Below, piece after piece: positions 1-40,165 of a stretch of 42,168 nt of DNA. How positions within the stretch are numbered: the first letter of the stretch is position 1; each line of letters begins with the position of its first letter. This DNA is from a virus. The DNA is taken from IMG/VR virus record IMGVR_UViG_3300009695_000010, positions 1 through 42,168 of that record. One strand, given 5' to 3'. The position numbers and the translations under genes are program-made. The notes beneath the pieces are model-generated. The model had not been told where the DNA came from. It searched no databases and worked only from the letters and a program-made list of their open reading frames with translations.

Positions 1-465
1 AGTTTATATGAAATAGATTATACTGTATATGGTAATGAAATTTGTTCAGAATTAGAATGGGCATTGTATAATCTTTCTTTAGCAGTAAAGAAACTAGGAG
101 AAATTGAAAGAAGTTATAAGTTAGCAAAACAAGCATTAACTTTCAGTACAGAAGAAAATAGTAATAGAATATTAACATACTGGCTAATAGGAGAATGTTG
201 TAACTTAATGGGATCTGAATATAAAGAAGAAGGAATTAACGTATTTGAGAAATGTATATCTTTTTATAAAAGTGTTGGAGAGAAAAAATATGAAATACTA
301 TCACAGTTTAATAAAGCAAAACTATTAAAAGATATAAATAGCATGGAAGAATTAATTAAAGAATATGAAATGACACAATTTAAAAACGTGTTGCATACAT
401 TTGGAGATATGGAAAATGATGAAGTTCTTAAAGAATTGAAAATTGAATTAAATAATACTTTCTAA
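1..465 (+). CDS. TPR-repeat RRNPP-like regulator, 5' truncated
   Basis: The reading frame is open from base 1, so only the C-terminal 154 residues are in the window. The visible part is all helical with tetratricopeptide-like spacing (segments around 'YNLSLAVKKLGEIERSYKLA' and 'YWLIGECCNLMGSEYKEEG'), as in the peptide-binding C-terminal half of Rap/NprR/PlcR/AimR receptors. The N-terminal HTH expected of a DNA-binding member would lie outside the window and cannot be checked. The gene is followed at 70 bp by a small secreted-peptide gene (535-678), the usual receptor-pheromone order. The family call rests on the TPR pattern plus this context. Confidence 0.7.
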   Translation, partial: SLYEIDYTVYGNEICSELEWALYNLSLAVKKLGEIERSYKLAKQALTFSTEENSNRILTYWLIGECCNLMGSEYKEEGINVFEKCISFYKSVGEKKYEILSQFNKAKLLKDINSMEELIKEYEMTQFKNVLHTFGDMENDEVLKELKIELNNTF

Positions 466-474
466 GATTCAAAG

Positions 475-507
475 TGTGGGAGCGGATGTTTTTTAAACTC
501 TCCCACA
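475..507 (+). terminator. Hairpin between receptor and peptide genes
   Basis: A perfect 8-bp stem (TGTGGGAG at 475-482 with CTCCCACA at 500-507) surrounds a 17-nt loop that contains a run of T. No U-tract follows the stem, so it may be an attenuator or processing site, not a strong terminator. It separates the receptor gene from the peptide gene. Confidence 0.5.
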
Positions 508-534
508 AATAAAATAATAGGAGGTAATCTCAAG

Positions 535-678
535 ATGAAGATTACAAAACGTACAAAGAACATAGTAATGGCAATGTGTCTTATTGCTATACTAACAGCA
601 GGTGTAAGCACAACTAAAGGAACAGTTGTTACAGGGGGCACAGTAACAACACAGGGAATAGATCCACCAATAAACTAA
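535..678 (+). CDS. Secreted signalling-peptide precursor, 47 aa (arbitrium/Phr-like)
   Basis: The ATG at 535 follows an AGGAGG at 519-524. The 47-residue product begins MKITKRTKN, then has a hydrophobic core (IVMAMCLIAILTAGV, about residues 10-24), then a Thr/Gly-rich tail ending in GIDPPIN. This is the classic layout of an exported pro-peptide whose C-terminal 5-10 residues are cut off and re-imported. It lies directly downstream of a TPR receptor gene and directly upstream of a strong hairpin, as Phr, PapR and AimP precursors do. The exact mature peptide cannot be read from sequence; the C-terminal GIDPPIN region is my best guess. It is not similar in sequence to the SPbeta AimP peptides I know. 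Confidence 0.7.
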   Translation: MKITKRTKNIVMAMCLIAILTAGVSTTKGTVVTGGTVTTQGIDPPIN

Positions 679-690
679 CCAAGTGCAGTC

Positions 691-723
691 TTAGTCTTTC
701 CTGCAATATCAAAGAAAGACTAA
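691..723 (+). terminator. Terminator hairpin after peptide gene
   Basis: A perfect 10-bp stem (TTAGTCTTTC at 691-700 with GAAAGACTAA at 714-723) has a 13-nt loop and is followed by AATTTTAAAA. It would end the receptor-peptide transcript. In SPbeta, a terminator just after aimP is the point where AimR controls aimX, so this position may be regulatory; that is inference. Confidence 0.65.
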
Positions 724-745: not shown

Positions 746-1063
746 TTGAATAAAGAAGTGTTGGAGAAATTATGTAAAGAATATGGGTTTTCTTTTTCTA
801 TTATGGGTAAATATATTCAAATTGTAAGTAAGAGAGACACATATTATATATTGGATATGAATCATGAAGGAAGAAGAATTAAATTGTTTCACCAGAATAT
901 ATATGCAAGCGCTGGATTCCACAAACATGGAGAACATGAAAGTCTTAAAAATATATTTGCTAGTATTTTTAGCCATGATAATATCTACAATGTTGGTAGC
1001 AGAAACAATAAATTAACTAGAATGACAGAATTATTTAATCAACTTCACAACACTCCAGCATAA
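746..1063 (+). CDS. Hypothetical protein, 105 aa
   Basis: TTG at 746 is preferred over the in-frame GTG at 737, because the GTG is part of the ribosome binding site AAAGGGGTG (731-739), which is 6 nt from the TTG. The product is basic and soluble, with no membrane segment and no motif I recognise. It lies between the peptide cassette hairpin and the small membrane protein gene. If the upstream cassette works like arbitrium, this is the first gene whose expression would depend on read-through past the hairpin. Confidence 0.6.
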   Translation: MNKEVLEKLCKEYGFSFSIMGKYIQIVSKRDTYYILDMNHEGRRIKLFHQNIYASAGFHKHGEHESLKNIFASIFSHDNIYNVGSRNNKLTRMTELFNQLHNTPA

Positions 1064-1153: not shown

Positions 1154-1336
1154 ATGGAAGATCATTTTCTACTATTCCCAATACTGATTTTAGTAGGTAT
1201 ACTTTATGTAGCATGGTACATTATAAAATTGATATGGATTACGTTAGGATTAATATTTATACTAATAAGAAAAATATATCGAAAAATTATGAATAAAAAT
1301 GTAGAAGGAGTGAATAATAACAATGTTATTAGATGA
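1154..1336 (+). CDS. Small membrane protein, 60 aa
   Basis: ATG follows AGAGGTGAGAAC. Residues about 5-42 are almost continuously hydrophobic (LLFPILILVGILYVAWYI, then IWITLGLIFILI), consistent with two transmembrane helices or one long one, followed by a basic tail RKIYRKIMNKN. The end overlaps the start of the recombinase gene by 14 bp, so the two are probably translationally coupled. Function unknown. Confidence 0.6.
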   Translation: MEDHFLLFPILILVGILYVAWYIIKLIWITLGLIFILIRKIYRKIMNKNVEGVNNNNVIR

Positions 1337-2207
1337 GTATCTTGAATATCTAAAATCTACAGAAGGTAAGAGCTCTGGAACAATTACACAATATCACAAC
1401 AGCATGAAGCTATTTATGAATTATATGAAAGAAGATAAATACAGCATCACCAGAGAATCAATCAAAAAAATTAAAATATCTGATATTTATGGATTTTTAG
1501 CTACAATATCAGAATCTAATTCAGGAAGCTCCAGAAGAAATAAGATATCAGCATTAAAATCATTCTTTGAGTATTGTAAAGAGATTGAATTAGTAAAGCA
1601 TAATATAATTGTAGACATAAAGAAGCAACCAAAAACTCCAAGACGAATTCCTAAATATTTCAACCTAGATGAATGTAAATTATTAATAAGTTCAGTAGGC
1701 AAAAGAAATCTAATTAGAGATAAAATGATAATAATATTATTTCTATCTACTGGATTAAGATTAACAGAATTAATTAACCTAGATATAAATTGTGTGATTG
1801 ACAACAACTTAACAATAATCGGCAAAGGAAATAAAGAGAGGCCAGTGTATTTGAATCAAAAAATAATAACATTGTTAAAAGAATATCTATTAGAAAGAGG
1901 AGAATCAGATTCAAACGCATTATTCCTTAGTGAGCGAAATAACAGAATTTCTAAGAGTGCAGTACAGAATTTATTAAGAAATGCAATAGACAGAGCTGGA
2001 TTGAAATTAGAAGGTGAAACTGACGTCCTAGTGCATGTTTTAAGACACTCGTTTGCTACAAATGAATATCAGAATGGAACAGATATTAGACTCCTCCAGG
2101 AAGTGCTAGGACATGAAGATATAGGAACGACTCAAATTTATACACACGTTAATAAGAAGCAAATGGAAAATCAAGCAGAAAATTCTATAATGAGTAGTAT
2201 AATATAA
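1323..2207 (+). CDS. Tyrosine recombinase (XerC/XerD-like integrase)
   Basis: The 294-residue protein has an N-terminal SAM-like core-binding domain (about 1-90) and a C-terminal catalytic domain. The catalytic set is visible: Arg146 in STGLRLTEL, Lys168 in GKGNKERPVY, His238 and Arg241 in VHVLRHSFAT, His264 in VLGHED, and the nucleophile Tyr273 in TQIYTHV. Length and motifs fit XerC/XerD proteins and integrases of that type. Roles could be integration/excision or dimer resolution of a plasmid-like prophage; a palindromic candidate site follows at 2240-2260. The start at 1323 overlaps the upstream membrane-protein gene and has GAAGGAG upstream. Confidence 0.93.
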   Translation: MLLDEYLEYLKSTEGKSSGTITQYHNSMKLFMNYMKEDKYSITRESIKKIKISDIYGFLATISESNSGSSRRNKISALKSFFEYCKEIELVKHNIIVDIKKQPKTPRRIPKYFNLDECKLLISSVGKRNLIRDKMIIILFLSTGLRLTELINLDINCVIDNNLTIIGKGNKERPVYLNQKIITLLKEYLLERGESDSNALFLSERNNRISKSAVQNLLRNAIDRAGLKLEGETDVLVHVLRHSFATNEYQNGTDIRLLQEVLGHEDIGTTQIYTHVNKKQMENQAENSIMSSII

Positions 2208-2265: not shown

Positions 2266-2294
2266 TTGACAAAGTAACAATTAAATAATAAAAT
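2266..2294 (+). promoter_or_regulatory. Promoter upstream of coiled-coil gene
   Basis: TTGACA at 2266-2271, a 17-bp spacer and TAAAAT at 2289-2294. A near copy of the 16-bp repeat begins at 2278, offset from its position in the other repeat-containing promoters. It would drive 2318-3897. Confidence 0.5.
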
Positions 2295-2317: not shown

Positions 2318-2953
2318 ATGAATGAGAAAATAGAATTATTAAAAGAATTAATTGAGAAATCTGAATTAACCGTACAACAAAAGATAAACAAAATCATCCA
2401 GACACTAATAAGAACAGAAGATCCAATTAAAGCTAGAATATTGAGTAATGAGATATTAGATGGTAAATTTGATAAGTTAGAAAATCAAAGTATTTTAAAT
2501 TTGGTAACAGCATTTAATGATAACGAATCAATAGTAGTAAGCAATCAAACAGAATACAATGATGTTAAAGAAGATACCCTATTTAATAAAAATGATTCAA
2601 ACGAAAACAAAGCAATCAAGACATTAGAGTATCAATTGAAAGTAATGCAATCTCAGATGGAATCCTTAGAATACAATAATAATAAAAAGATGAAAGAACT
2701 AGAAGAATTAAACAATAAACGAATAGACGAACTAACTAAATCAAATAATGAATTGTCTGGATTAAATAGTAGATTAGTTGCAAGATTAAGTTTAACTAAA
2801 AATTCTAAACTGATTGAAGTATCAGATGAAAGTATTAACGAATTATATATTAGAAACTTAGAAACAGCAGTAACTGAATATGAAGAAGCGTTTATCGTAA
2901 AAGGAATAGTTCCAAAGACTTATTACAAATTAAATAATAGAGAGGGAGAATAA
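2318..2953 (+). CDS. Coiled-coil protein, 211 aa
   Basis: A highly charged Glu/Lys/Asn-rich protein. Residues about 95-155 form a predicted coiled coil (heptad pattern around YNNNKKMKELEELNNKRIDE). The N-terminal 60 residues look like a helical bundle. No catalytic motif is visible. It ends 5 bp before the inactive recombinase-like gene at 2959, so the two probably act together, perhaps in partition, replication control or as a recombination accessory pair. Function not recognised. Confidence 0.6.
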   Translation: MNEKIELLKELIEKSELTVQQKINKIIQTLIRTEDPIKARILSNEILDGKFDKLENQSILNLVTAFNDNESIVVSNQTEYNDVKEDTLFNKNDSNENKAIKTLEYQLKVMQSQMESLEYNNNKKMKELEELNNKRIDELTKSNNELSGLNSRLVARLSLTKNSKLIEVSDESINELYIRNLETAVTEYEEAFIVKGIVPKTYYKLNNREGE

Positions 2954-2958
2954 AAATT

Positions 2959-3897
2959 ATGAGAACTCAAAAATATTCTAAATTATATATTACTATTTAT
3001 GACGAATTAAATAATAAGGGAAATGTTATTAAAAACATTCTAAAAACTGAAAAGGAATTAGATATTGAATTATTAGATTGGAAAGATGAACAGTTAGTTA
3101 TTTTCTTAAAGAAATTTGAATCAATATCTCCAGTAAGTTTAAGAAAAAATTTAACGATATTAAGAGAGTTTGCTAATTATATTTGTAAAGAAGAAAATCT
3201 TGAATGTCCTATATTTACATTAGAAGAATCTGTTTTTATGAGTTTGATTGATACAGATAAATTGTTATCCGTAACATTATCTTATGAACAGTTTCAGAAC
3301 ATCAGAGGACAGCTAGGAATGGCAGGTATAGGAGAAACAGTAAACTACAGAGATAAGCTTATTTTTGAACTCGCATGGTTTGGCGTTACTGAAGATGAAA
3401 TGAGAATGTTAAAAGAGTCTGATATAGAATATGTTGATAATAAAGGAATGGAAGTTGCTATATTAAATCTAAATACTGGTAAAACTGTAAGAATTGATGA
3501 TCCAGAAGTTATTGATGATATTAAAAAATGTATAGTAACAGATTCAATTACTAGAGTCGCTAAAGATGGCAGATTTAAAACTACTGGATACAGAGATTCA
3601 GAGTACCTACTAAGAGCTGGAAAATCAGGTGGAACATCTCCTAATTCATTCTTTGGTAAACCTGCTACAGCACTAAAAGGAGCTTTTGTTAAACAAGAAA
3701 TAACTTGTGATGGAATTAATGTCTTTGATTTGAGCTTAGACGATATTAGGAGGAGCAGACTGGTGCTGTTACTAAATAAAAAGAATGAAGAGTATTTTAA
3801 CTTTGAAACTGTTGCAGCAATATATAATCTTAAGACAATTTCTGCGATTAGATGGTACCGAGAAATAGCTGCAATGAAATATCCAGAGGTAAAATAA
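2959..3897 (+). CDS. Tyrosine recombinase-fold protein lacking catalytic residues
   Basis: The 312-residue protein has the two-domain outline of a phage integrase: a SAM-like N-terminal domain (LRKNLTILREFANYICKEE, about 60-80) and a C-terminal domain starting near YRDKLIFELAWFGVTEDEM. That segment aligns with the usual 'LLLATGLRxSEL' box, but the catalytic Arg position is Thr (GVT). The H-x-x-R box is represented by LDDIRRSRLVLL, without the His. No Tyr nucleophile in the usual GHxxxxxTxxYxH context is visible. It is therefore probably a DNA-binding or structural paralogue, not an active recombinase. It is co-transcribed with the coiled-coil gene. Confidence 0.6.
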   Translation: MRTQKYSKLYITIYDELNNKGNVIKNILKTEKELDIELLDWKDEQLVIFLKKFESISPVSLRKNLTILREFANYICKEENLECPIFTLEESVFMSLIDTDKLLSVTLSYEQFQNIRGQLGMAGIGETVNYRDKLIFELAWFGVTEDEMRMLKESDIEYVDNKGMEVAILNLNTGKTVRIDDPEVIDDIKKCIVTDSITRVAKDGRFKTTGYRDSEYLLRAGKSGGTSPNSFFGKPATALKGAFVKQEITCDGINVFDLSLDDIRRSRLVLLLNKKNEEYFNFETVAAIYNLKTISAIRWYREIAAMKYPEVK

Positions 3898-4994: not shown

Positions 4995-5327
4995 ATGGAA
5001 GAATCGGGAACATCTTTAAATTGGAAGAAAATAAGAGCTGAAGAATTATCGAGGAAAGGTTATTCCCCGGAAGATATGGGATTATTAGAATTACTTAAAG
5101 AAGATTGTTTAAATGTAGATATATTAAAAATGTACCTTGAAAGATATATCCATAATAAAGTTATGTATGAGAATGATAGTAAAAAGTTAAGAGATAAAAT
5201 ACACATCAAATGCAAAATTATGAATGAATGGATTACAGAATGGAGCGATTTTGATTCTGTATCATGGTATCAGGAAGGACTAGATGAATTAAGTAAAATG
5301 ATTGGATCATTACAGAGATTAACTTAA
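4995..5327 (+). CDS. Hypothetical helical protein, 110 aa
   Basis: A strong AAGGAGG precedes the ATG. The product is acidic and mostly helical, with a Trp-rich C-terminal stretch (MNEWITEWSDFDSVSWYQEG). No catalytic or metal-binding pattern is seen. It is part of the small-gene run; function unknown. Confidence 0.6.
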   Translation: MEESGTSLNWKKIRAEELSRKGYSPEDMGLLELLKEDCLNVDILKMYLERYIHNKVMYENDSKKLRDKIHIKCKIMNEWITEWSDFDSVSWYQEGLDELSKMIGSLQRLT

Positions 5328-18423: not shown

Positions 18424-19983
18424 TTGAGTGATATTTTTATTACAGGAGTTGAAGAAAGGTATCCAAAGGAGTTATTAGAGAATAGAGCAATGCATGAGGG
18501 TAATTGTATAGCAATCATTTTTAAGGATATTTTAACACTTGATGAAATAAGTTTAAAATCTACTGACTTCATTACTCAGGATGGCAAGTTTTACTTTGAA
18601 ATAGCCAGTAATGTCCGTAAGAAAGGGTTTAACGTTATAGACGATGTTACAATCTTCTCAGAATGTGGAGATGTAATTACTAATGGATATGAAAAAAGAG
18701 GTGGGTGGCAGTCTATTCAGGATATTGTAGATGTTGTGAATGACAAGAATGCTGAGAGCTATTTAGATACTCTAGATAGAGAAAATGTAATGTTAAAATT
18801 ACATGATCTAGGAATGAATTTATTAAAACCTATTCAAGATAGTGGAAAAGAAATAATTCCTTATAAGTTGTTTAGAAAAATGGATAGTGAGAGTGTCGTG
18901 GAATGGTACGAAAGTAAAATCAATGAATTTTCTACAAGCAATAGCACTAAGGTTATTGAAGAAGGTAATTTAGAGATAACAGACGAATACTTAGAGGGGT
19001 TGCAACAAGGACTAGAAAGTGGTGTCCCATTCGATATCTGTGGAAAAGACATTAATGGAGAAGACATTAAATGTTTCCCTTATATGAGCAATGAAATAGG
19101 TGGATTAATGGATGAAACATTAAATATGTTATCAGGATTCAGTTCAAGTGGTAAAACCACAGCATGGACTACAATCATGATGGGATTGCAATATAGAGGA
19201 AGGAAAATAATAATTATATCAAATGAACAAAAATCAAGCGTATTTAAAATGCAATTTCTGACATGGCTACTTTCAAAGTATTTTAAGTATTTTAAAGTAA
19301 CAAAGAAAAAAATAAAGAATAAGAGTGAACTAACTCAAGAAGATAAAATTATGATTAAAAAGGCTCAAATACTATGGAATGAGAAATATCAAAGTAGTTT
19401 TAAATTTGTTAGAATTACTGACGCAGATATGTCAGTAGTAAAAAAGAAGGTAAGAAAATATGCGCTTAATGATGGATTTGATACATTCTTGTACGATACT
19501 TTTAAAGTTGAATTAGATGGTGGAAATGGTGATAATAATCATTTAAAATTAATAAAAGATTCAAGAACTTTAGATATTTTATGTAAGAAGTATAAATTAC
19601 TTGGTCTTGCAAGTATGCAGTTAGCTGAAGGAATGGTAGGAACATTATTTTTAAATGCTGGAGTATTATCTCAAAGCAAACAAGTAAAGGAAATATTAGA
19701 AAGTCTAACTATGATGAGGCCTACGTTCCTAGAAGAATTAGACTCCACGAATAAAAAGTTTTATTGTAAACCATTCAGAAGAAAACAAATTAATGGGAAA
19801 TGGATTCAAGAAGATTATACTCCAGATCCGACAGGAGTATATAGGACTATATTCTTTGAGAAAACAAGAAATGGAGTAAGTTCTAATGATACCGGAGTTT
19901 GTATGTTATGGAAGTTCAATGGGAATAATGGAACCTTTGTAGAGTCTGCATATTGCATGCCCAAGCATGGGCGAATAGGTTAA
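18424..19983 (+). CDS. DnaB-type replicative helicase
   Basis: The 519-residue protein starts at TTG 18424 after GAGGGGGAA. The N-terminal region (about 1-170) is helical, like DnaB N-domains. The RecA-like core starts near 205, with Walker A LSGFSSSGKTTAWTT (Gly238-Thr246) and a later NEQKSSVFKMQFLTWLLS segment. DTFLYDTFKVE fits the Walker B strand. As a hexameric 5'-3' helicase it would unwind the phage origin together with the primase and polymerase encoded downstream. The end is followed by a homing endonuclease gene. Confidence 0.85.
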   Translation: MSDIFITGVEERYPKELLENRAMHEGNCIAIIFKDILTLDEISLKSTDFITQDGKFYFEIASNVRKKGFNVIDDVTIFSECGDVITNGYEKRGGWQSIQDIVDVVNDKNAESYLDTLDRENVMLKLHDLGMNLLKPIQDSGKEIIPYKLFRKMDSESVVEWYESKINEFSTSNSTKVIEEGNLEITDEYLEGLQQGLESGVPFDICGKDINGEDIKCFPYMSNEIGGLMDETLNMLSGFSSSGKTTAWTTIMMGLQYRGRKIIIISNEQKSSVFKMQFLTWLLSKYFKYFKVTKKKIKNKSELTQEDKIMIKKAQILWNEKYQSSFKFVRITDADMSVVKKKVRKYALNDGFDTFLYDTFKVELDGGNGDNNHLKLIKDSRTLDILCKKYKLLGLASMQLAEGMVGTLFLNAGVLSQSKQVKEILESLTMMRPTFLEELDSTNKKFYCKPFRRKQINGKWIQEDYTPDPTGVYRTIFFEKTRNGVSSNDTGVCMLWKFNGNNGTFVESAYCMPKHGRIG

Positions 19984-19997
19984 AGAAAGGAGAATAT

Positions 19998-20555
19998 ATG
20001 AGTAAAAAACTTAATGAATATAATTTAAGTGGTGAATATGGGATAGGATATACCTCAAAAGGAACTGAATTTTATTTTGATATAGAAGATTATAATAAAA
20101 TTAAAAATTTTACGTGGTATATTGGCAAAGATGGGTACGTAGTTGAAAAATATAAAAAGATAATGACTAGAATGCATAGATTAGTTATGAAACTAAATAA
20201 AGATAATCCTATTAAGGTGGATCATATTGATAGAAAACGAAATGATAACAGAAAAATGAATCTAAGATTTGCAACATCTAGTAAAAATGGCATGAATAAA
20301 GGATTACAAAGTAACAATAGCACTGGATTTGTTGGAGTTTCATGGGATAAAAAGAATAATAAGTGGTATACTGCAATTAAAATAAATCAAAAAGTTGTTT
20401 TCATAGGAAGATTTAGTGATATAGATATTGCTATAACAGAAAGACTTAAAGCAGAAATAAAATACTTTGGAAAAGAATTTGCACCACAAAGAAATTTATT
20501 TGAAGAATATGGAATTGCTCAAGAGAAACAATTAAACAATAATTTAGTTTGCTAA
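19998..20555 (+). CDS. HNH homing endonuclease with AP2 domain
   Basis: ATG at 19998 follows AAAGGAG; upstream in-frame codons overlap the helicase end and are unlikely. The 185-residue protein starts NEYNLSGEYGIGYTSKGTEF. The HNH box is MHRLVMKL ... VDHIDRKRNDNRKMNLR, followed by a C-terminal AP2-type DNA-binding segment (STGFVGVSWDKKNNKWY). It inserts between helicase and primase genes, a typical location for freestanding homing endonucleases. The C-terminal QLNNN is encoded by an exact copy of the dispersed repeat. It is the same family as 30814. Confidence 0.9.
   Translation: MSKKLNEYNLSGEYGIGYTSKGTEFYFDIEDYNKIKNFTWYIGKDGYVVEKYKKIMTRMHRLVMKLNKDNPIKVDHIDRKRNDNRKMNLRFATSSKNGMNKGLQSNNSTGFVGVSWDKKNNKWYTAIKINQKVVFIGRFSDIDIAITERLKAEIKYFGKEFAPQRNLFEEYGIAQEKQLNNNLVC
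20529..20544 (+). repeat. 16-bp dispersed repeat inside HNH gene 3' end
   Basis: CAATTAAACAATAATT encodes Gln-Leu-Asn-Asn-Asn of the HNH protein. This is the only one of the three frames of the repeat without a stop codon. Confidence 0.8.
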
Positions 20556-28328: not shown

Positions 28329-29084
28329 ATTAAAAATTCAAGATTAGGAGAATCAAAAAAAATGAATTGTGGCGAAGTTGCAACAATAATTAAATACAAT
28401 AAAGCCACTGATATTATGATCAAATTTGAGGGAACCGGAGAACAAATCAACTGTGAATATGGAGATTTCAAAAAAGGTATGATTAAAAGCCATTTTTCAC
28501 CTTCTGTTTTTGGTATAGGGATAGTAGGATTAACACTTACAGTTGATGAAAAAGGAAAGCAATTAGATAGTTACCATAATTGGATAGGAATGATAGATAG
28601 ATGCTATAACAAAAAACATTCAATTAAAAGACCAACTTACGCAGAGTGTAAAGTATGCAATAAATGGTTAACCTACTCTACTTTTAAAAAGTGGTATGAT
28701 AACAATTATTATGAAATTGAAGAGGAAAAGATGTGCTTAGACAAAGATATCTTATTCAAAGGTAATAAAATTTACTCGCCAGAGACATGCATTTATGTGC
28801 CTAATAGAATAAATGTGTTGTTTACTAAAAGACAAAATGAGCGAGGTAAGTTTCCTATTGGAGTTGATTTTATAAAGAAAAATAATAACTATAGATCAAG
28901 ATGTAATTATGAAAAGAATGTTTCGGTTTATTTAGGATCATTTAGTACTCCAGAAGAAGCATTCATGCCTTATAAAATATACAAAGAACAATTGATTAAA
29001 TCTATTGCAGATATATACAAAAATAAAATACCAAAAAATCTATATAATGCTATGTATTATTATAAAATTGAAATGACAGATTAA
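28329..29084 (+). CDS. HNH homing endonuclease (RLGE-type N-terminal domain)
   Basis: The N-terminal domain RLGESKKMNCGEVATIIKYN ... NCEYGDFKKGMIKSHFSP is a known module of phage HNH proteins, and it extends upstream of the first ATG at 28362. Reading back, the frame reaches ATT at 28329, 8 nt after AAAGGAG, giving 251 residues. The central part (YHNWIGMIDRCYNKK, YAECKVCNKWLTYSTFKKWY, LDKDILFKGNKIYSPETC) is the HNH-type nuclease region, and the C-terminal part (YLGSFSTPEEAF) is AP2-like. It sits next to the C5 methyltransferase. Confidence 0.8.
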   Translation: MKNSRLGESKKMNCGEVATIIKYNKATDIMIKFEGTGEQINCEYGDFKKGMIKSHFSPSVFGIGIVGLTLTVDEKGKQLDSYHNWIGMIDRCYNKKHSIKRPTYAECKVCNKWLTYSTFKKWYDNNYYEIEEEKMCLDKDILFKGNKIYSPETCIYVPNRINVLFTKRQNERGKFPIGVDFIKKNNNYRSRCNYEKNVSVYLGSFSTPEEAFMPYKIYKEQLIKSIADIYKNKIPKNLYNAMYYYKIEMTD

Positions 29085-30661: not shown

Positions 30662-30814
30662 ATGCCAGCTAAAGGAAGTTATTGTGAAATGTGTTCTCAT
30701 AGGGGAAAGAAAACAGATATGGTTATGGATAAAGGCAGATATTTCTGCTCAAAGGAATGTGCTACATGGTATGAAAATACATATCTTAAGGATGAGGAGG
30801 TAAAAAAGAAATAA
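30662..30814 (+). CDS. Small zinc-finger protein, 50 aa
   Basis: ATG at 30662 follows AAGGAGATGTAGAT. The 50-residue product carries YCEMCSHRGKKTD (C-x2-C) and YFCSKECATWYEN (C-x3-C), the outline of a TRASH/YHS-like or MYM-type zinc finger. The stop overlaps the start of the next HNH gene (TAATG). Confidence 0.6.
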   Translation: MPAKGSYCEMCSHRGKKTDMVMDKGRYFCSKECATWYENTYLKDEEVKKK

Positions 30815-31767
30815 TGGGGAAAGTTAAAGATGATTTGACAGGACAAAGGTTTGGTAAATTAACGGTCATAAATAAAGTAGAAGGTTATATAGCTACAAAT
30901 GGAAGTAAACCGACTATGTTACATTGTGAATGCGATTGTGGCAAAGAAAAAGATATCCTTAAAGATAGTTTAACTTCAAACAAAACTAAGAGTTGTGGGT
31001 GTTTAAAAAAAGAGAAAGGAGATATAGATAGGAAAAGTTTAATTGGGATGAAATTTGGTAGATTGACTGTTCTATATCAAACAGATTATTATTTCTTGCC
31101 TTCTGGAAAAAGGGTTGCTCAGTGGTATTGTCAATGTGATTGTAATTTAGATAATCCAAACTTTGCTACTGCTTCTAGTGGTAGTTTACAAAGTGGAAAT
31201 ACAGCATCGTGTGGTTGTTTTGCTAAAGAACAGATATATAAGGCACATAAAAAATATAATTCTTATAATTTAAATGGAGATTGTGGAATAGGGCATACCT
31301 TTAAAGATGAACCATTTTTATTTGACTTAGAAGACTTCAATAAAATTAAAGAATATTGTTGGTGTTATGATAAGGATGGATATGTTATTACAAATAGTAA
31401 CAATAAAACTATATGGATGCATAGGTTAATAATGAGTCCTAAAGAAAATGAGGATGTTGATCATATATACCATGTACATCATGATAATAGGAAAAATGAA
31501 TTAAGGTCAATTACTCGTTCTCAAAACCAAATGAATAAAGTTCTTTCAATTCATAATACAACTGGAATAAAAGGAGTACGATTTACAGGTAATCATAAAC
31601 CTTGGAAAGCGTCTATAACAATAGATGGTAAATGTGTACAAAAGGCTTTTAAAAATAGAGAAGATGCAATAGTTCATAGAATATATCTTGAAGAGAAATA
31701 TCATGGTGAATATGCACTTAAAGAAAAAGAACAACTGAACAATAATTTACAGGAGGTGACTATTTGA
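30814..31767 (+). CDS. Modular HNH homing endonuclease with two Cys-rich DNA-binding repeats
   Basis: The 317-residue protein has two N-terminal copies of the 'LTGQRFGKLTV ... CDCG ... SCGC' module (about 8-67 and 74-142; LTGQRFGKLTVINK and LIGMKFGRLTVLYQ), each with four Cys. A unit related to the 19998 endonuclease follows (SYNLNGDCGIGHTFKDEPF, MHRLIM, VDHIYHVHHDNRKNELR, TTGIKGVRF). This modular structure is typical of phage homing endonucleases. It is coupled to the preceding gene and overlaps the recJ-like gene start by 4 bp. Confidence 0.88.
   Translation: MGKVKDDLTGQRFGKLTVINKVEGYIATNGSKPTMLHCECDCGKEKDILKDSLTSNKTKSCGCLKKEKGDIDRKSLIGMKFGRLTVLYQTDYYFLPSGKRVAQWYCQCDCNLDNPNFATASSGSLQSGNTASCGCFAKEQIYKAHKKYNSYNLNGDCGIGHTFKDEPFLFDLEDFNKIKEYCWCYDKDGYVITNSNNKTIWMHRLIMSPKENEDVDHIYHVHHDNRKNELRSITRSQNQMNKVLSIHNTTGIKGVRFTGNHKPWKASITIDGKCVQKAFKNREDAIVHRIYLEEKYHGEYALKEKEQLNNNLQEVTI
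31732..31747 (+). repeat. 16-bp dispersed repeat inside HNH gene 3' end
   Basis: CAACTGAACAATAATT encodes Gln-Leu-Asn-Asn-Asn near the C-terminus of the modular HNH protein and lies just before the RBS (AGGAGGTGA) of the recJ-like gene. Confidence 0.8.
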
Positions 31768-35154: not shown

Positions 35155-35178
35155 AAATAAAATATGACGGAGGTATTT

Positions 35179-38100
35179 ATGCAAATAGTTAAAAGAGATG
35201 GTAGAGAGATAGGGTTTCAAAAGGGTAAAATTGTTGAAGCAATAGTAAAATCTATGAATGAAACTAAGAAAGGAATAGATGTAGACTTAGCTAATAAAAT
35301 TTCAGAGTCTATATCTAAAATAAATAAAGAAAACTTATCTGTAGAAGATATTCAAGATTTAGTTGAACAAAAACTCATGAAGTCCAATCGTAAAGATGTA
35401 GCTAAACAATATATATCTTATAGAAGTGAAAGAACTAGAATGAGAGAAATTAATAATGAAATAAATACAAAGATAAAAAAAATAGTTGCCTGTTCAGATG
35501 TTCAAAATGCTAATGCAAATGTAGATGAACATTCTTTTGGTGGAAGAAAATTTGAAAGTGCTGGAGTAATTCATAAGAAAATAGGATTAGAAATGATGAG
35601 ACCAGAAACGGCATTAGCTCATAAAGAAAATAGGGTTTATCAACATGATTTAGATTCTTATGACATAGGAATGCATAATTGTTTGTTTTTAGACATGGAG
35701 AGAGTTTTGAATAATGGATTTGAAACTAGGAATGGAGATGTAAGACCTGCAAGTTCATATAGTACGGCTTGTCAACTAGTTGCAGTAGCTTTCCAGGTAC
35801 AAAGTCAAGTGCAATTTGGAGGTTGTGGATCTGCTCACATTGATTATGATTTAAAACCATTTGTTAAGAAATCATTTATAAAGCACTTTAAGGATGGACT
35901 TAAATATATAGACGAATTAGAACAATATGAGATTGATAATATAATAGAAACAAATGATGTACAATTATCTAATTTAGAATTAGAACAAAACTTTAAAAAA
36001 TCATTTAAATATGCCTTAGAAAAAACAGATAAGGAAGGATTACAAGCATCTCAAGGATTATATCATAATCTGAATACATTAGAATCAAGAGCTGGAAGCC
36101 AAGTACCTTTTACTTCAATTAACTTTGGAAGAGATAAAACTCCAGAAGGTAGAAAAGTTACAGAATGGATGTTGAAGTCATCAATTGATGGTATAGGTAA
36201 GAATCACAGAACAAGTATATTCCCTATATCTATATTCCAATATAAAAAAGGTGAAAATGATAAAGTAGGAACTCCTAATTACGATTTAAAAAAACTAGCG
36301 ATAAAGTCACTTACTAAGAGAATATATCCTAATATAGTTAACTGTGACTACACTCAAAATATAGAAGATATAAATAGTCCAGATACATCTATGGCAACAA
36401 TGGGGTGTGTAGATGGAGAAGAGATAATTACTTATAAATATAAAGACTTATTGTTTATAGAAAGTTTTAAAAGAATGTGGGATAGACTATCTAAAGATTT
36501 TGAGGTTAAAGAACAACAATTAAATAATAATTTTTATATAGATTTAAATAACGTATTGATTTACGACACGAATAAAGGATTTGTAGACACAAAGAGGATA
36601 ATCAAAAATCAAGATAAAGGAGATTGGAACAGAGTTAAATTCTCGAATGGAAGAAGTTTATTAGCTACATCAGATCATCCTTTGCCTATTGAAAAAAAGG
36701 GAAGAGTTTTTGTTAAAGATTTAATAGTTGGAGACAAAATACAAATTAATCAGAATCAATATAGTGAAACTAATATAGAATATTCTCAAGATAAAGCATG
36801 GTTACTTGGATTTCTATTATGCGATGGTTGTTATGATATGCAACTAAGTTCTTCAATTGCTTTGACCGGTGAGGATGACATAGAGGAAAATTATAGAAGA
36901 ATATTTAAAGAAATTTATGACTTAAATGTAGAAACAGTTGTTTGGAATAGGGGCGCAAGAGGAGATTATAAAGAATTAAAAGTTAGAACCGGAAACTATA
37001 AAGCAGTTGAATTAGAGCTGTTAGAAGTGTTTGGAGGAAAGCAAAAAATATATAGACAAATACCAAACGAAGTTTTTTCATGGAATAGAGAATCTAAATT
37101 GTCATTTCTAGCAGGAATGATTGATGCAGATGGATATATTAACAGCACTGGACATAGTGGAACAATAGTACAAATAGGTAGTACAAATAAAGAATTAGCA
37201 TTGCAGACTGCTGCATTATCCCAAAGTTTAGGAATACCTACAAAAACTTACTTAAACCATTATACTTCCAAAGATAAAAGTAAAATAAGATATAGAGTTG
37301 AGTTTTCTGCGACAATAGAATTATTAAATTATATGGCTTGTAATAAAAAAATCGACTGTTTTACTAGAGAGGCAAACACAACAAAAACTAATGTTGCAGT
37401 AGTTGTATCAGTAGAAATGTTAGGTAATTTAAATAAATATAGTTATGACGTTACTACTGAAAGTGATTTCTTTGAAGTTAGTGGAATATGCAACCATAAT
37501 TGTAGAACGATGATAGGAGCAGATAGACATGGATTAGGATACTCTAAAATAGGAAGAGGTAATGTAGCTCCTGTAACTATGGATTTACCTAAGATTGGTA
37601 TTAAACATGGTATATGTCTTGGAGAAAGAACTGAAGCTGATTTAGAAGGATTTTGGAAAGAATTTGATGAAGTATTGGGAATAGCATCTCAAAGTTTAGT
37701 TGATAGATTCTATCATATTTGTAGTCAAAATTATAGGTCAGCACCATTTATGTATACAAATGGAACAATAGCAGATTTCGATAAAGTAATAGATAAAGGA
37801 ATTTATGAAGCTATGAGACATGGAACTTTAGCTATGGGATACATTGGAATTGCAGAAATGTGTCAAGCTTTATTTGGTAAAAACCACGCAGAGGATAAAG
37901 AAGTTCATAAGTTTGCCTTAAGTGTAGTAAAATATATCTCTGAATACACTAAGAAGGTAAGTGAGGTATATAATTTAAACTTTAGTTGTTATGCTTCTCC
38001 AGCAGAAAATACCTGTAAAACAATGATGCAAGGACTACAAAAGGAATTTGGAATGATTGAGAATGTTACCTCAAGAGCTTATTTAACTAATTCACATCAT

Positions 38101-38487
38101 ATTCCAGTATGGCAAAAGGTTTCTATCTTTGAAAAGTTAAATCTTGAAGCTCCATTCTGTCGATATCCTACTGGTGGTTGCATTACATATGTTGAATTAG
38201 ATAGTGCAATAATTAAAAATGAGAAGGCAATAGAGGATATAATAGATTATGCTATGTCATTAGATATACCTTACTTAGCTTTTAACTTTCCAATAGATAC
38301 TTGCTTAGACTGTGGTTATCAAGGAGAATTTAATGACAAGTGTTTAGTATGTGGAAGTGCAAATATTCAGCAACTTAGAAGAGTAACAGGGTATTTGACA
38401 ACAGACTATAAGAATTTTAATGCAGGCAAAATTGCAGAAGTAGAAGATAGGATAAAACACAGTAAATATACCGATTTTGGAGAATAG
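35179..38487 (+). CDS. nrdD: Anaerobic ribonucleotide reductase NrdD, intein-containing
   Basis: ATG at 35179 follows GGAGG (35169-35173); an ATG at 35164 lies before the RBS. The precursor has 1102 residues, of which 365 are an intein, leaving a 737-residue NrdD. An N-terminal ATP-cone (VKRDGREIGFQKGKIVEAIV) is followed by the ten-strand barrel. The intein splits MATMG from CRTMIGADRHG, at the Cys that is the thiyl-radical residue in NrdD. Near the C-terminus are the zinc site CLDCGYQGEFNDKCLVCG and the glycyl-radical box RVTGYLTTDY (Gly1071, precursor numbering). It makes dNTPs from NTPs without oxygen and pairs with NrdG. Confidence 0.95.
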   Translation: MQIVKRDGREIGFQKGKIVEAIVKSMNETKKGIDVDLANKISESISKINKENLSVEDIQDLVEQKLMKSNRKDVAKQYISYRSERTRMREINNEINTKIKKIVACSDVQNANANVDEHSFGGRKFESAGVIHKKIGLEMMRPETALAHKENRVYQHDLDSYDIGMHNCLFLDMERVLNNGFETRNGDVRPASSYSTACQLVAVAFQVQSQVQFGGCGSAHIDYDLKPFVKKSFIKHFKDGLKYIDELEQYEIDNIIETNDVQLSNLELEQNFKKSFKYALEKTDKEGLQASQGLYHNLNTLESRAGSQVPFTSINFGRDKTPEGRKVTEWMLKSSIDGIGKNHRTSIFPISIFQYKKGENDKVGTPNYDLKKLAIKSLTKRIYPNIVNCDYTQNIEDINSPDTSMATMGCVDGEEIITYKYKDLLFIESFKRMWDRLSKDFEVKEQQLNNNFYIDLNNVLIYDTNKGFVDTKRIIKNQDKGDWNRVKFSNGRSLLATSDHPLPIEKKGRVFVKDLIVGDKIQINQNQYSETNIEYSQDKAWLLGFLLCDGCYDMQLSSSIALTGEDDIEENYRRIFKEIYDLNVETVVWNRGARGDYKELKVRTGNYKAVELELLEVFGGKQKIYRQIPNEVFSWNRESKLSFLAGMIDADGYINSTGHSGTIVQIGSTNKELALQTAALSQSLGIPTKTYLNHYTSKDKSKIRYRVEFSATIELLNYMACNKKIDCFTREANTTKTNVAVVVSVEMLGNLNKYSYDVTTESDFFEVSGICNHNCRTMIGADRHGLGYSKIGRGNVAPVTMDLPKIGIKHGICLGERTEADLEGFWKEFDEVLGIASQSLVDRFYHICSQNYRSAPFMYTNGTIADFDKVIDKGIYEAMRHGTLAMGYIGIAEMCQALFGKNHAEDKEVHKFALSVVKYISEYTKKVSEVYNLNFSCYASPAENTCKTMMQGLQKEFGMIENVTSRAYLTNSHHIPVWQKVSIFEKLNLEAPFCRYPTGGCITYVELDSAIIKNEKAIEDIIDYAMSLDIPYLAFNFPIDTCLDCGYQGEFNDKCLVCGSANIQQLRRVTGYLTTDYKNFNAGKIAEVEDRIKHSKYTDFGE
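36406..37500 (+). mobile_element. LAGLIDADG intein inside NrdD
   Basis: Intein of 365 residues. It begins with Cys (CVDGEEIITYKYKD) and ends FEVSGICNHN before Cys+1, the His-Asn-Cys end expected for splicing. Block B is ATSDHP. A homing endonuclease is present, with two dodecapeptide motifs: LLGFLLCDGCY and SFLAGMIDADGYI. All splicing residues look intact, so splicing and homing may both be active. It contains an exact dispersed repeat at 36517-36532. Confidence 0.93.
36517..36532 (+). repeat. 16-bp dispersed repeat inside intein
   Basis: CAATTAAATAATAATT encodes Gln-Leu-Asn-Asn-Asn in the intein, between the splicing N-block and block B, and not near any gene boundary. Confidence 0.8.
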
Positions 38488-39538: not shown

Positions 39539-40165
39539 ATGGGTGGAATAGGGAGATTATTAAGAATTAGACAATGTAGTGTTTGTGGAAAAGACATTGA
39601 AATACACCATAAAATAAGAATGGAAAGTACTACTATTTATTGTAGCAGAAAATGTTATAAAGAAAAACTAATCGAAAAGCCAAAAGCAAATGTTAAATGT
39701 GCCTATTGCAATAAAGAGTTTTATTTAAAGCCTAGTCATTTGAGTAAAACAGATACGCATTGTTGTTCAGAAAAATGTTTGAGGAATCTAAGAAAAACAA
39801 CTTATTCAGGTAAAAATAATCCTCAATATGGATTAAAAGGTATACTCAATGATAGTTGGAAAAGTGATGTTAAAATAACCCATTATGGCTATAGAAAAAT
39901 TAGAGCACTAGATCATCCTTTTAAAGACATTGATGATTTTGTATTTGAGCATAGATTAATCGCAGAAAAATATCTGCTAACAAGTGAAAACAGTATAAAG
40001 GTAGGAGATAAAAGTTATTTAAAAGACACATATGTTGTTCATCATGAAGATTTTAATAGATTGAATAACAAAGTGAATAATTTGAAGGTCATGACTAAAT
40101 CAGATCACATAAAATGGCATTGGCAAATAAGAGAACAATGTAAAATATATAAATCAGTAATATAA
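39539..40165 (+). CDS. HNH endonuclease with zinc-binding N-terminus
   Basis: Starts ATG 39539, 3 nt after GAGGAG-like GTAGAGGAGAAAT. Residues 14-83 hold Cys pairs (QCSVCGKDIEIH, YCSRKCYKE, KCAYCNKEF, CCSEKCLRN) forming zinc modules. The C-terminal HNH part has FVFEHRLIAEKYL and VVHHEDFNRLNNKVNNLKVM. Probably a homing endonuclease inserted between dUTPase and the Gam-like gene. Confidence 0.85.
   Translation: MGGIGRLLRIRQCSVCGKDIEIHHKIRMESTTIYCSRKCYKEKLIEKPKANVKCAYCNKEFYLKPSHLSKTDTHCCSEKCLRNLRKTTYSGKNNPQYGLKGILNDSWKSDVKITHYGYRKIRALDHPFKDIDDFVFEHRLIAEKYLLTSENSIKVGDKSYLKDTYVVHHEDFNRLNNKVNNLKVMTKSDHIKWHWQIREQCKIYKSVI

What the first reader, a model, noticed from the sequence alone, without database searches (positions are those of the whole stretch)
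1..723. Arbitrium-like receptor and peptide cassette in a clostridial phage
A TPR receptor C-terminus is followed by a 47-codon gene (535-678) with basic N-terminus, hydrophobic core and exportable C-terminal tail (GIDPPIN), then a perfect 10-bp hairpin (691-723), an unknown gene and a recombinase. Order and layout match receptor-pheromone systems such as AimR-AimP, but the peptide sequence is unlike the SPbeta-group ones I know. The peptide gene is easily missed because it is so short.
Basis: partly seen in the sequence, partly recalled or inferred. Interest (0 to 1): 0.8.

Follow-up and report, generated by a model that had tools for sequence, protein, structure and literature searches.

The report
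Phage peptide receptor carrying MazF domain
Three phage sequences from anaerobic bacteria carry, in two cases at the exact place where Bacillus phages keep their 'arbitrium' peptide-messaging genes, a small exported peptide and a receptor whose front end is a MazF-type RNA-acting toxin fold instead of the usual DNA-binding part, which would mean that viruses can wire a chemical message straight to an RNA- or toxin-based switch.

Summary
In detail: receptor C-terminus (1-465), 47-codon peptide gene (535-678) and a perfect 10-bp hairpin (691-723). A longer copy of the same phage gives the missing 5' part. The receptor is not HTH-TPR. It is a MazF/PemK domain (Pfam E=9e-20) fused to a TPR domain, and the closest TPR found in 399 genomes is an NprR-like pheromone receptor. 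Two more phages carry the same pair. Their peptides, 47-50 codons, end IDPPIN, IDPPTH and IDPPGH, with synonymous third-position changes. In two phages the pair is followed by integrase, coiled-coil and MrpR-like genes, exactly as aimR-aimP precede yopMNOPQR in SPbeta. One of these phages is collinear with SPbeta genome-wide. AimR models do not match, so this is arbitrium-like but not AimR. In Bacillus phi3T, arbitrium works by controlling host MazF; here a MazF fold is built into the receptor. Two MazF residues needed for cleavage (E20, R25) are replaced in all three, so RNA or antitoxin binding is at least as likely as cleavage. Two covarying RNA hairpins flank the receptor gene. I found no earlier report. 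Peptide binding and output direction are untested.

The parts
1..465 (+). C-terminal TPR part (residues 213-366) of the MazF-TPR receptor; the 5' part lies outside the window (L002:5365-6465)
   Evidence: 100% identical in L002
475..507 (+). conserved RNA hairpin HP2: 8-bp stem TGTGGGAG/CTCCCACA, loop ending TTAAACT, between receptor stop and peptide ribosome site; no U-run after it
   Evidence: 7 core pairs formed in 3/3 phages, 3 pairs with changes on both sides
520..524 (+). ribosome-binding site (GGAGG) of the peptide gene
   Evidence: sequence
535..678 (+). propeptide gene, 47 codons, basic N-terminus, hydrophobic core, C-terminus GIDPPIN
   Evidence: homologues L010:4909-5052 and L036:7104-7256
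658..675 (+). codons of the inferred mature signal IDPPIN (IDPPTH and IDPPGH in relatives)
   Evidence: mature length is inference by analogy with AimP
691..723 (+). perfect 10-bp hairpin after the peptide gene; same place as the stem-loop of SPbeta between aimP and yopM; L010 has a scored terminator here (5056-5071)
746..1063 (+). conserved 105-aa protein of unknown fold (58% identical in L010), position of yopN
   Evidence: no homology to YopN detected
1154..1336 (+). conserved 60-aa membrane-type small protein, position of yopO
1323..2207 (+). tyrosine recombinase, position of yopP (60% identical in L010)
2266..2294 (+). promoter-like TTGACA-17-TAAAAT before the coiled-coil and MrpR genes, also present at L010:6928
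   Evidence: consensus match only
2318..2953 (+). coiled-coil protein, position of yopQ
   Evidence: no homology to YopQ detected
2959..3897 (+). MrpR/YopR-like master repressor, position of yopR
   Evidence: phrog_5830 E=1e-9; SPbeta YopR hits the same family at 4e-117

Best explanation
The locus is an arbitrium-like cell-to-cell signalling switch of SPbeta-like phages of anaerobic Bacillota. The 47-codon product is exported and cut to a short C-terminal peptide (about IDPPIN), which accumulates as infections proceed, is taken up again, and binds the TPR domain of the receptor encoded just upstream. The receptor's output module is a MazF fold instead of an HTH. Binding of the peptide changes what the MazF fold does to RNA: it holds, or possibly cuts, specific single-stranded loops. 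Candidate targets are the two conserved hairpins that flank the receptor's own gene. This changes expression of the peptide/repressor region, and perhaps host or lytic transcripts, and so biases lysis versus lysogeny. Shown by sequence: the gene pair, the domain fusion, conservation of the peptide end, the hairpins and the locus position. Inferred: export, binding, RNA as target, and effect on lysogeny. The direction (peptide favours lysogeny) is by analogy only.
For: MazF domain in all three receptors: PF02452 E=9e-20, 9e-18 and 1e-14, all above the curated cut-off, and MazF structures in PDB to E=3e-13. TPR: confident helical repeats, pLDDT mostly 75-92. NprR and RapI are among the structural neighbours. 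Best TPR match in 399 genomes is an HTH-TPR protein that is itself NprR-like, hhalign 86.5%, E=4.5e-6. Propeptide conserved in place, length and ends. Locus order equals SPbeta yopK-yopR, with an MrpR homologue. G003 is collinear with SPbeta through tape measure, portal, terminase, yonJ, receptor locus, helicase, RecJ, polymerase and yotM. Two hairpins with compensatory changes and conserved loop. Published: phi3T arbitrium acts through MazF, and AimR is an antiterminator there (PMC10769878). YopM binds MazE (PMC10516654).
Against: Only three phages. No direct evidence of export, processing, peptide binding or RNA contact. The MazF half of the structure model has pLDDT below 50 because only two sequences were available. 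TPR repeats are common, and the top structural neighbours are kinesin light chain and MamA rather than RRNPP receptors. The hairpins could act without the receptor; with three sequences, shuffles reach the observed covariation in 33-55 of 500 trials. YopN, YopQ and AimR show no detectable homology. In L036 the pair is not followed by the integrase-MrpR operon.
Confidence: 0.5

Rival explanations
1. Peptide-gated antitoxin sponge. The MazF fold no longer cuts RNA but still binds MazF partners. The receptor captures MazE, or a phage-encoded MazF inhibitor, and so frees or restrains host MazF, doing directly what YopM/phi3T_93 (MazE binders) and AimX/YosL (MazF binders) do in Bacillus phages.
For: Residues needed for cleavage are replaced: R25 is H in 3/3 and E20 is V or L in 3/3, against R in 38 of 39 and E in 35 of 38 free MazF relatives; G18, P26, N36 and T48 are kept. 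R25A, E20A and G18A abolish or nearly abolish cleavage in a MazF (PMC8634880). MazE and MazF are the published targets of SPbeta arbitrium proteins.
Against: No MazE or antitoxin gene seen at the locus. Host MazE not known. The binding interface was not modelled.
Confidence: 0.2
2. Peptide-gated RNase toxin. The MazF domain is an active endoribonuclease with an altered active site (His for Arg) that cleaves lytic or host transcripts when peptide is bound, giving lysogeny or abortive arrest.
For: MazF fold with the catalytic Thr kept in all three. MazF RNase activity promotes phi3T lysogeny, and a T48A mutant fails to (PMC10769878).
Against: Two positions needed for activity are changed in all three. 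No antitoxin gene beside it to protect a lysogen.
Confidence: 0.2
3. No signalling: a TPR-regulated MazF-like protein next to an unrelated small membrane peptide (for example a type I toxin or holin-like peptide).
For: Short hydrophobic peptides are common in phages. Export and binding are untested.
Against: The hydrophobic core diverges while the C-terminal IDPP is fixed and its codons vary synonymously, the reverse of what a membrane toxin would show. The pair stays together in a different gene context (L036). The position is that of aimR-aimP.
Confidence: 0.1

Closest known systems
Arbitrium AimR-AimP of SPbeta/phi3T phages
   Same: Same genome position in an SPbeta-collinear phage; TPR receptor followed by a 41-50 codon propeptide with C-terminal signal; stem-loop after the peptide gene; MrpR-type repressor operon downstream; same MazF theme
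   Different: N-terminal MazF fold instead of HTH; shorter TPR part (about 190 aa); no match to AimR profiles; peptide IDPPxx instead of xxxxGA; anaerobe phages instead of Bacillus
NprR / Rap and other RRNPPA receptors
   Same: TPR domain of the NprR/Rap type, adjacent propeptide gene
   Different: Known N-terminal modules are HTH or a three-helix bundle (PMC9765709), not MazF
MazF/PemK type II toxins (EndoA, phrog_1936)
   Same: MazF fold, conserved Thr48, Pro26, Asn36 and Gly18 positions
   Different: Fused to TPR; E20, R25 and R85 positions replaced; no antitoxin partner gene; none of the 105 of 399 genomes with a close MazF relative has it in an ORF over 185 aa
MrpR (YopR) of SPbeta
   Same: Downstream gene is in the same PHROG family (phrog_5830), at the same position
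   Different: Distant; Pfam MrpR_N_CB only at E=0.05, below cut-off

Membership tests
AimR (arbitrium receptor) | Match to AimR profiles PF22871 / NF038310 | tested here: not met
   No match for the MazF-TPR proteins, nor anywhere in the phage records; SPbeta AimR control E=4e-109 and 7e-81
AimR (arbitrium receptor) | N-terminal HTH DNA-binding domain | tested here: not met
   N-terminus is PF02452 MazF/PemK
Arbitrium system | Receptor directly followed by a secreted propeptide gene | tested here: met
   3/3 phages; secretion inferred from sequence only
Arbitrium system | Locus upstream of the yopMNOPQR/MrpR repressor operon in an SPbeta-like phage | tested here: met
   Window and L010; not in L036
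Arbitrium system | Peptide changes lysis-lysogeny | not testable with these tools
   Needs experiment
RRNPPA receptors | TPR domain of RRNPP type | tested here: inconclusive
   hhalign to an NprR-like protein 86.5%, E=4.5e-6 over 78 columns; Foldseek E about 4e-3 to NprR and RapI, but other TPRs score as well
RRNPPA receptors | Binds the mature peptide | not testable with these tools
   Needs ITC or a structure
MazF/PemK | Match above curated cut-off | tested here: met
   PF02452 71, 65 and 55 bits against cut-off 23
MazF/PemK | Catalytic Arg25, Glu20 and Thr48 | tested here: not met
   R25 to H and E20 to V/L in 3/3; T48 kept
MazEF toxin-antitoxin system | Adjacent MazE antitoxin gene | tested here: inconclusive
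   Neighbouring small ORFs hit no antitoxin family in Pfam or PADLOC, but such genes can be missed

The most novel reading that the evidence does not exclude
A viral quorum-sensing receptor whose output is an RNA-acting MazF fold: the peptide signal gates RNA binding or cleavage directly, which merges the arbitrium receptor with the MazF axis that Bacillus phages control only through separate proteins.
Probability: 0.5. Interest if true: 0.93.

Novelty: new variant of a known kind. Interest (0 to 1): 0.85.

Why it matters
Known RRNPP/arbitrium receptors act through DNA-binding HTH or protein-binding helix bundles. A receptor with a MazF fold would add RNA (or toxin-antitoxin partners) as a direct output of peptide signalling. 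It would give independent evolutionary support to the recent claim that arbitrium works by steering MazF, extend arbitrium-like switching beyond Bacillus to phages of anaerobes, and make the question 'why is MazF in this switch' testable with one purified protein and a synthetic hexapeptide.

Tried and rejected
HTH receptor: rejected, MazF fold instead. Membership in AimR: rejected by profile. Generic type II TA operon: no MazE-like neighbour seen. HP2 as terminator: no U-run and not scored. Homology of the 105-aa protein to YopN and of the coiled coil to YopQ: not detected; fold search of the 105-aa model gave nothing. GenBank phages and plasmids: only free MazF hits; MrpR-like protein no hit in phages; cassette DNA no hit in plasmids. 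Genome-contig scans: no receptor relative; the integrase scan found only distant recombinases. L019 keeps the MrpR-like gene but no receptor upstream. G101 keeps MrpR-like remnants without a receptor. Rfam: none. Psychrobacillus phage Perkons: free MazF, no TPR fusion. Host identification through the terminase gave only distant SPbeta-like phages, including Clostridioides phiCDIF1296T.

Full report
WHAT IS THERE. The window is a 42-kb virus record. Its first 465 bases are the end of a gene cut by the contig end. The 47-codon ORF at 535-678, the 10-bp hairpin at 691-723, the unknown gene and the recombinase are all present as described.

THE MISSING 5' PART. A 125.8-kb record of the same phage (L002, 100% identical over the receptor part) gives the full receptor, 366 aa with a GGAGG ribosome site. 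A second record, L003, ends inside the same gene. The N-terminus is a MazF/PemK domain (PF02452 E=9e-20, residues 7-109), confirmed against MazF structures and phage MazF families. The C-terminal part is TPR: pLDDT mostly 75-92 in the model of the L010 relative, while the MazF half is not confidently modelled from two sequences.

RELATIVES. L010 (IMGVR_UViG_2868238732_000001, 126 kb) has the whole cassette: a 312-aa MazF-TPR receptor (39% identical in the pairwise alignment with the gap-containing linker, 48% over aligned columns), a 47-codon peptide gene, homologues of the 105-aa and 60-aa proteins, integrase (60%), coiled coil (49%) and MrpR-like protein (51%). L036 (IMGVR_UViG_2868233026_000001, 42 kb) has a 308-aa receptor 65% identical to that of L010 and a 50-codon peptide gene, but then a different neighbourhood, so receptor and peptide travel as a unit. 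The insertion that makes the window receptor longer is a 58-residue linker between the two domains.

THE PEPTIDE. The three propeptides share MKI.K at the start, a basic N-terminus and a hydrophobic core of a strength like that of SPbeta AimP, and end GIDPPIN, TIDPPTH and SIDPPGH. The middle is not conserved. The codons for I, D and the first P differ only synonymously (ATA GAT CCA CCA; ATC GAC CCA CCA; ATT GAT CCT CCA). That is selection on the protein sequence of the C-terminal end, as expected for a propeptide whose last residues are the signal. The exact mature length is inference.

THE POSITION. In SPbeta the order is yopK (aimR), yopL (aimP), stem-loop, yopM, N, O, P (integrase), Q, R (MrpR). 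In the window it is receptor, peptide, hairpin, 105-aa protein, 60-aa protein, integrase, coiled coil, MrpR-like. The last gene belongs to the YopR family phrog_5830 (E=1e-9; YopR itself 4e-117). L010 has one more small ORF (73 aa) at the place of yopM, behind a scored terminator and a perfect TTGACA/TATAAT promoter-like site. The L010 phage is collinear with SPbeta for tape measure, portal, terminase, yonJ, the receptor locus, yoqB, helicase, RecJ, DNA polymerase and yotM. So the MazF-TPR gene sits where aimR sits. No AimR-family protein is found elsewhere in these records.

THE TPR DOMAIN. AimR profiles do not match. In an open search of 399 genomes the only hit to the TPR profile was an HTH-TPR protein, which is NprR-like (PDB 4gpk E=1.9e-23). 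hhalign supports the relation (86.5%, E=4.5e-6, 78 columns). Foldseek lists NprR and RapI among many TPR proteins, not on top.

THE MAZF DOMAIN. Published mutants show that G18, E20 and R25 are needed for MazF cleavage (PMC8634880). In the three fused proteins G18, P26, N36 and T48 are kept, but R25 is His and E20 is Val or Leu. Among 39 free relatives R25 is Arg in 38, and E20 is Glu in 35 of the 38 aligned there. R85 is Gln in all three. Canonical cleavage is therefore doubtful, and RNA binding without cleavage or capture of MazE is equally open. No fused MazF occurs among the MazF relatives at E<=1e-9 in 399 genomes (105 genomes had one; longest open frame 185 aa).

RNA HAIRPINS. A hairpin between receptor stop and peptide ribosome site is kept in all three phages, with three pairs changed on both sides and a loop ending TAAACT. 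No other hairpin with that loop and a GC-rich stem (four or more G-C pairs) was found in the window, G003 or L036. A second one lies in the receptor's 5' leader, with two such pairs. Sliding controls are clearly lower for HP2, less so for HP1. With three sequences the shuffle control is reached in 33-55 of 500 trials, so this is good but not overwhelming support. Neither is followed by a U-run. They are natural candidates for the target of a MazF fold, but nothing shows that.

MECHANISM. Published work on phi3T shows that AimX and YosL bind and inactivate host MazF, that AimR is an antiterminator acting between aimP and aimX, and that MazF RNase activity promotes lysogeny (PMC10769878). In SPbeta, YopM binds MazE (PMC10516654). 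The present locus puts a MazF fold into the receptor itself. My preferred reading is a peptide-gated RNA-acting receptor. The two closest rivals are a peptide-gated MazE sponge and a peptide-gated RNase. All three predict peptide binding to the TPR domain and an effect on lysogeny.

NOVELTY. The reviewed RRNPPA receptors carry HTH or a three-helix bundle at the N-terminus (PMC9765709). Searches of the open literature for MazF with TPR, RRNPP or arbitrium gave no such fusion; subscription papers and preprints are not covered.

LIMITS. Three phages; host not identified (AT-rich, anaerobic NrdD, SPbeta-like relatives in Clostridioides); no biochemical evidence.

Noticed in passing
window 35164-38487: Anaerobic ribonucleotide reductase NrdD interrupted by a LAGLIDADG intein (about residues 450-779); SPbeta carries an intein in its aerobic nrdE, so an anaerobic counterpart holds one too.
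   Followed up: partly
window 16731-39529: Replication module like SPbeta: Sak4-like ATPase, DnaB-like helicase, primase-like YorJ homologue, PolC-like polymerase, 3D-domain-like protein, RecJ, NrdD/NrdG, dUTPase.
   Followed up: partly
L036:8030-11305: 1091-aa protein without Pfam or NCBIfam match, carrying a DKDGD motif like the DNDGD of YonO (SPbeta single-subunit RNA polymerase); possibly a divergent phage RNA polymerase next to the cassette.
   Followed up: partly
L049:11820-13110 (G101): Bacterial genome with an MrpR-like gene (E=1.6e-73) and a short coiled-coil gene left beside a CRISPR array; a prophage remnant without receptor.
   Followed up: partly
L019:9001-9879: 141-kb viral contig with an MrpR-like gene 61% identical to that of L010 but apparently broken at its 5' end, and no receptor-peptide pair upstream; a transposon-type (IS200/IS605 TnpB-like) gene lies nearby.
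   Followed up: no
window 19953-20555, 28362-29084, 30814-31767, 39539-40165: Several HNH-type homing-endonuclease-like ORFs inserted between replication genes; two of them have close relatives in G003.
   Followed up: no
L010:5185-5406: 73-aa ORF at the place of yopM, behind a terminator and a perfect promoter-like site; absent from the window phage. Candidate AimX/YopM counterpart.
   Followed up: partly
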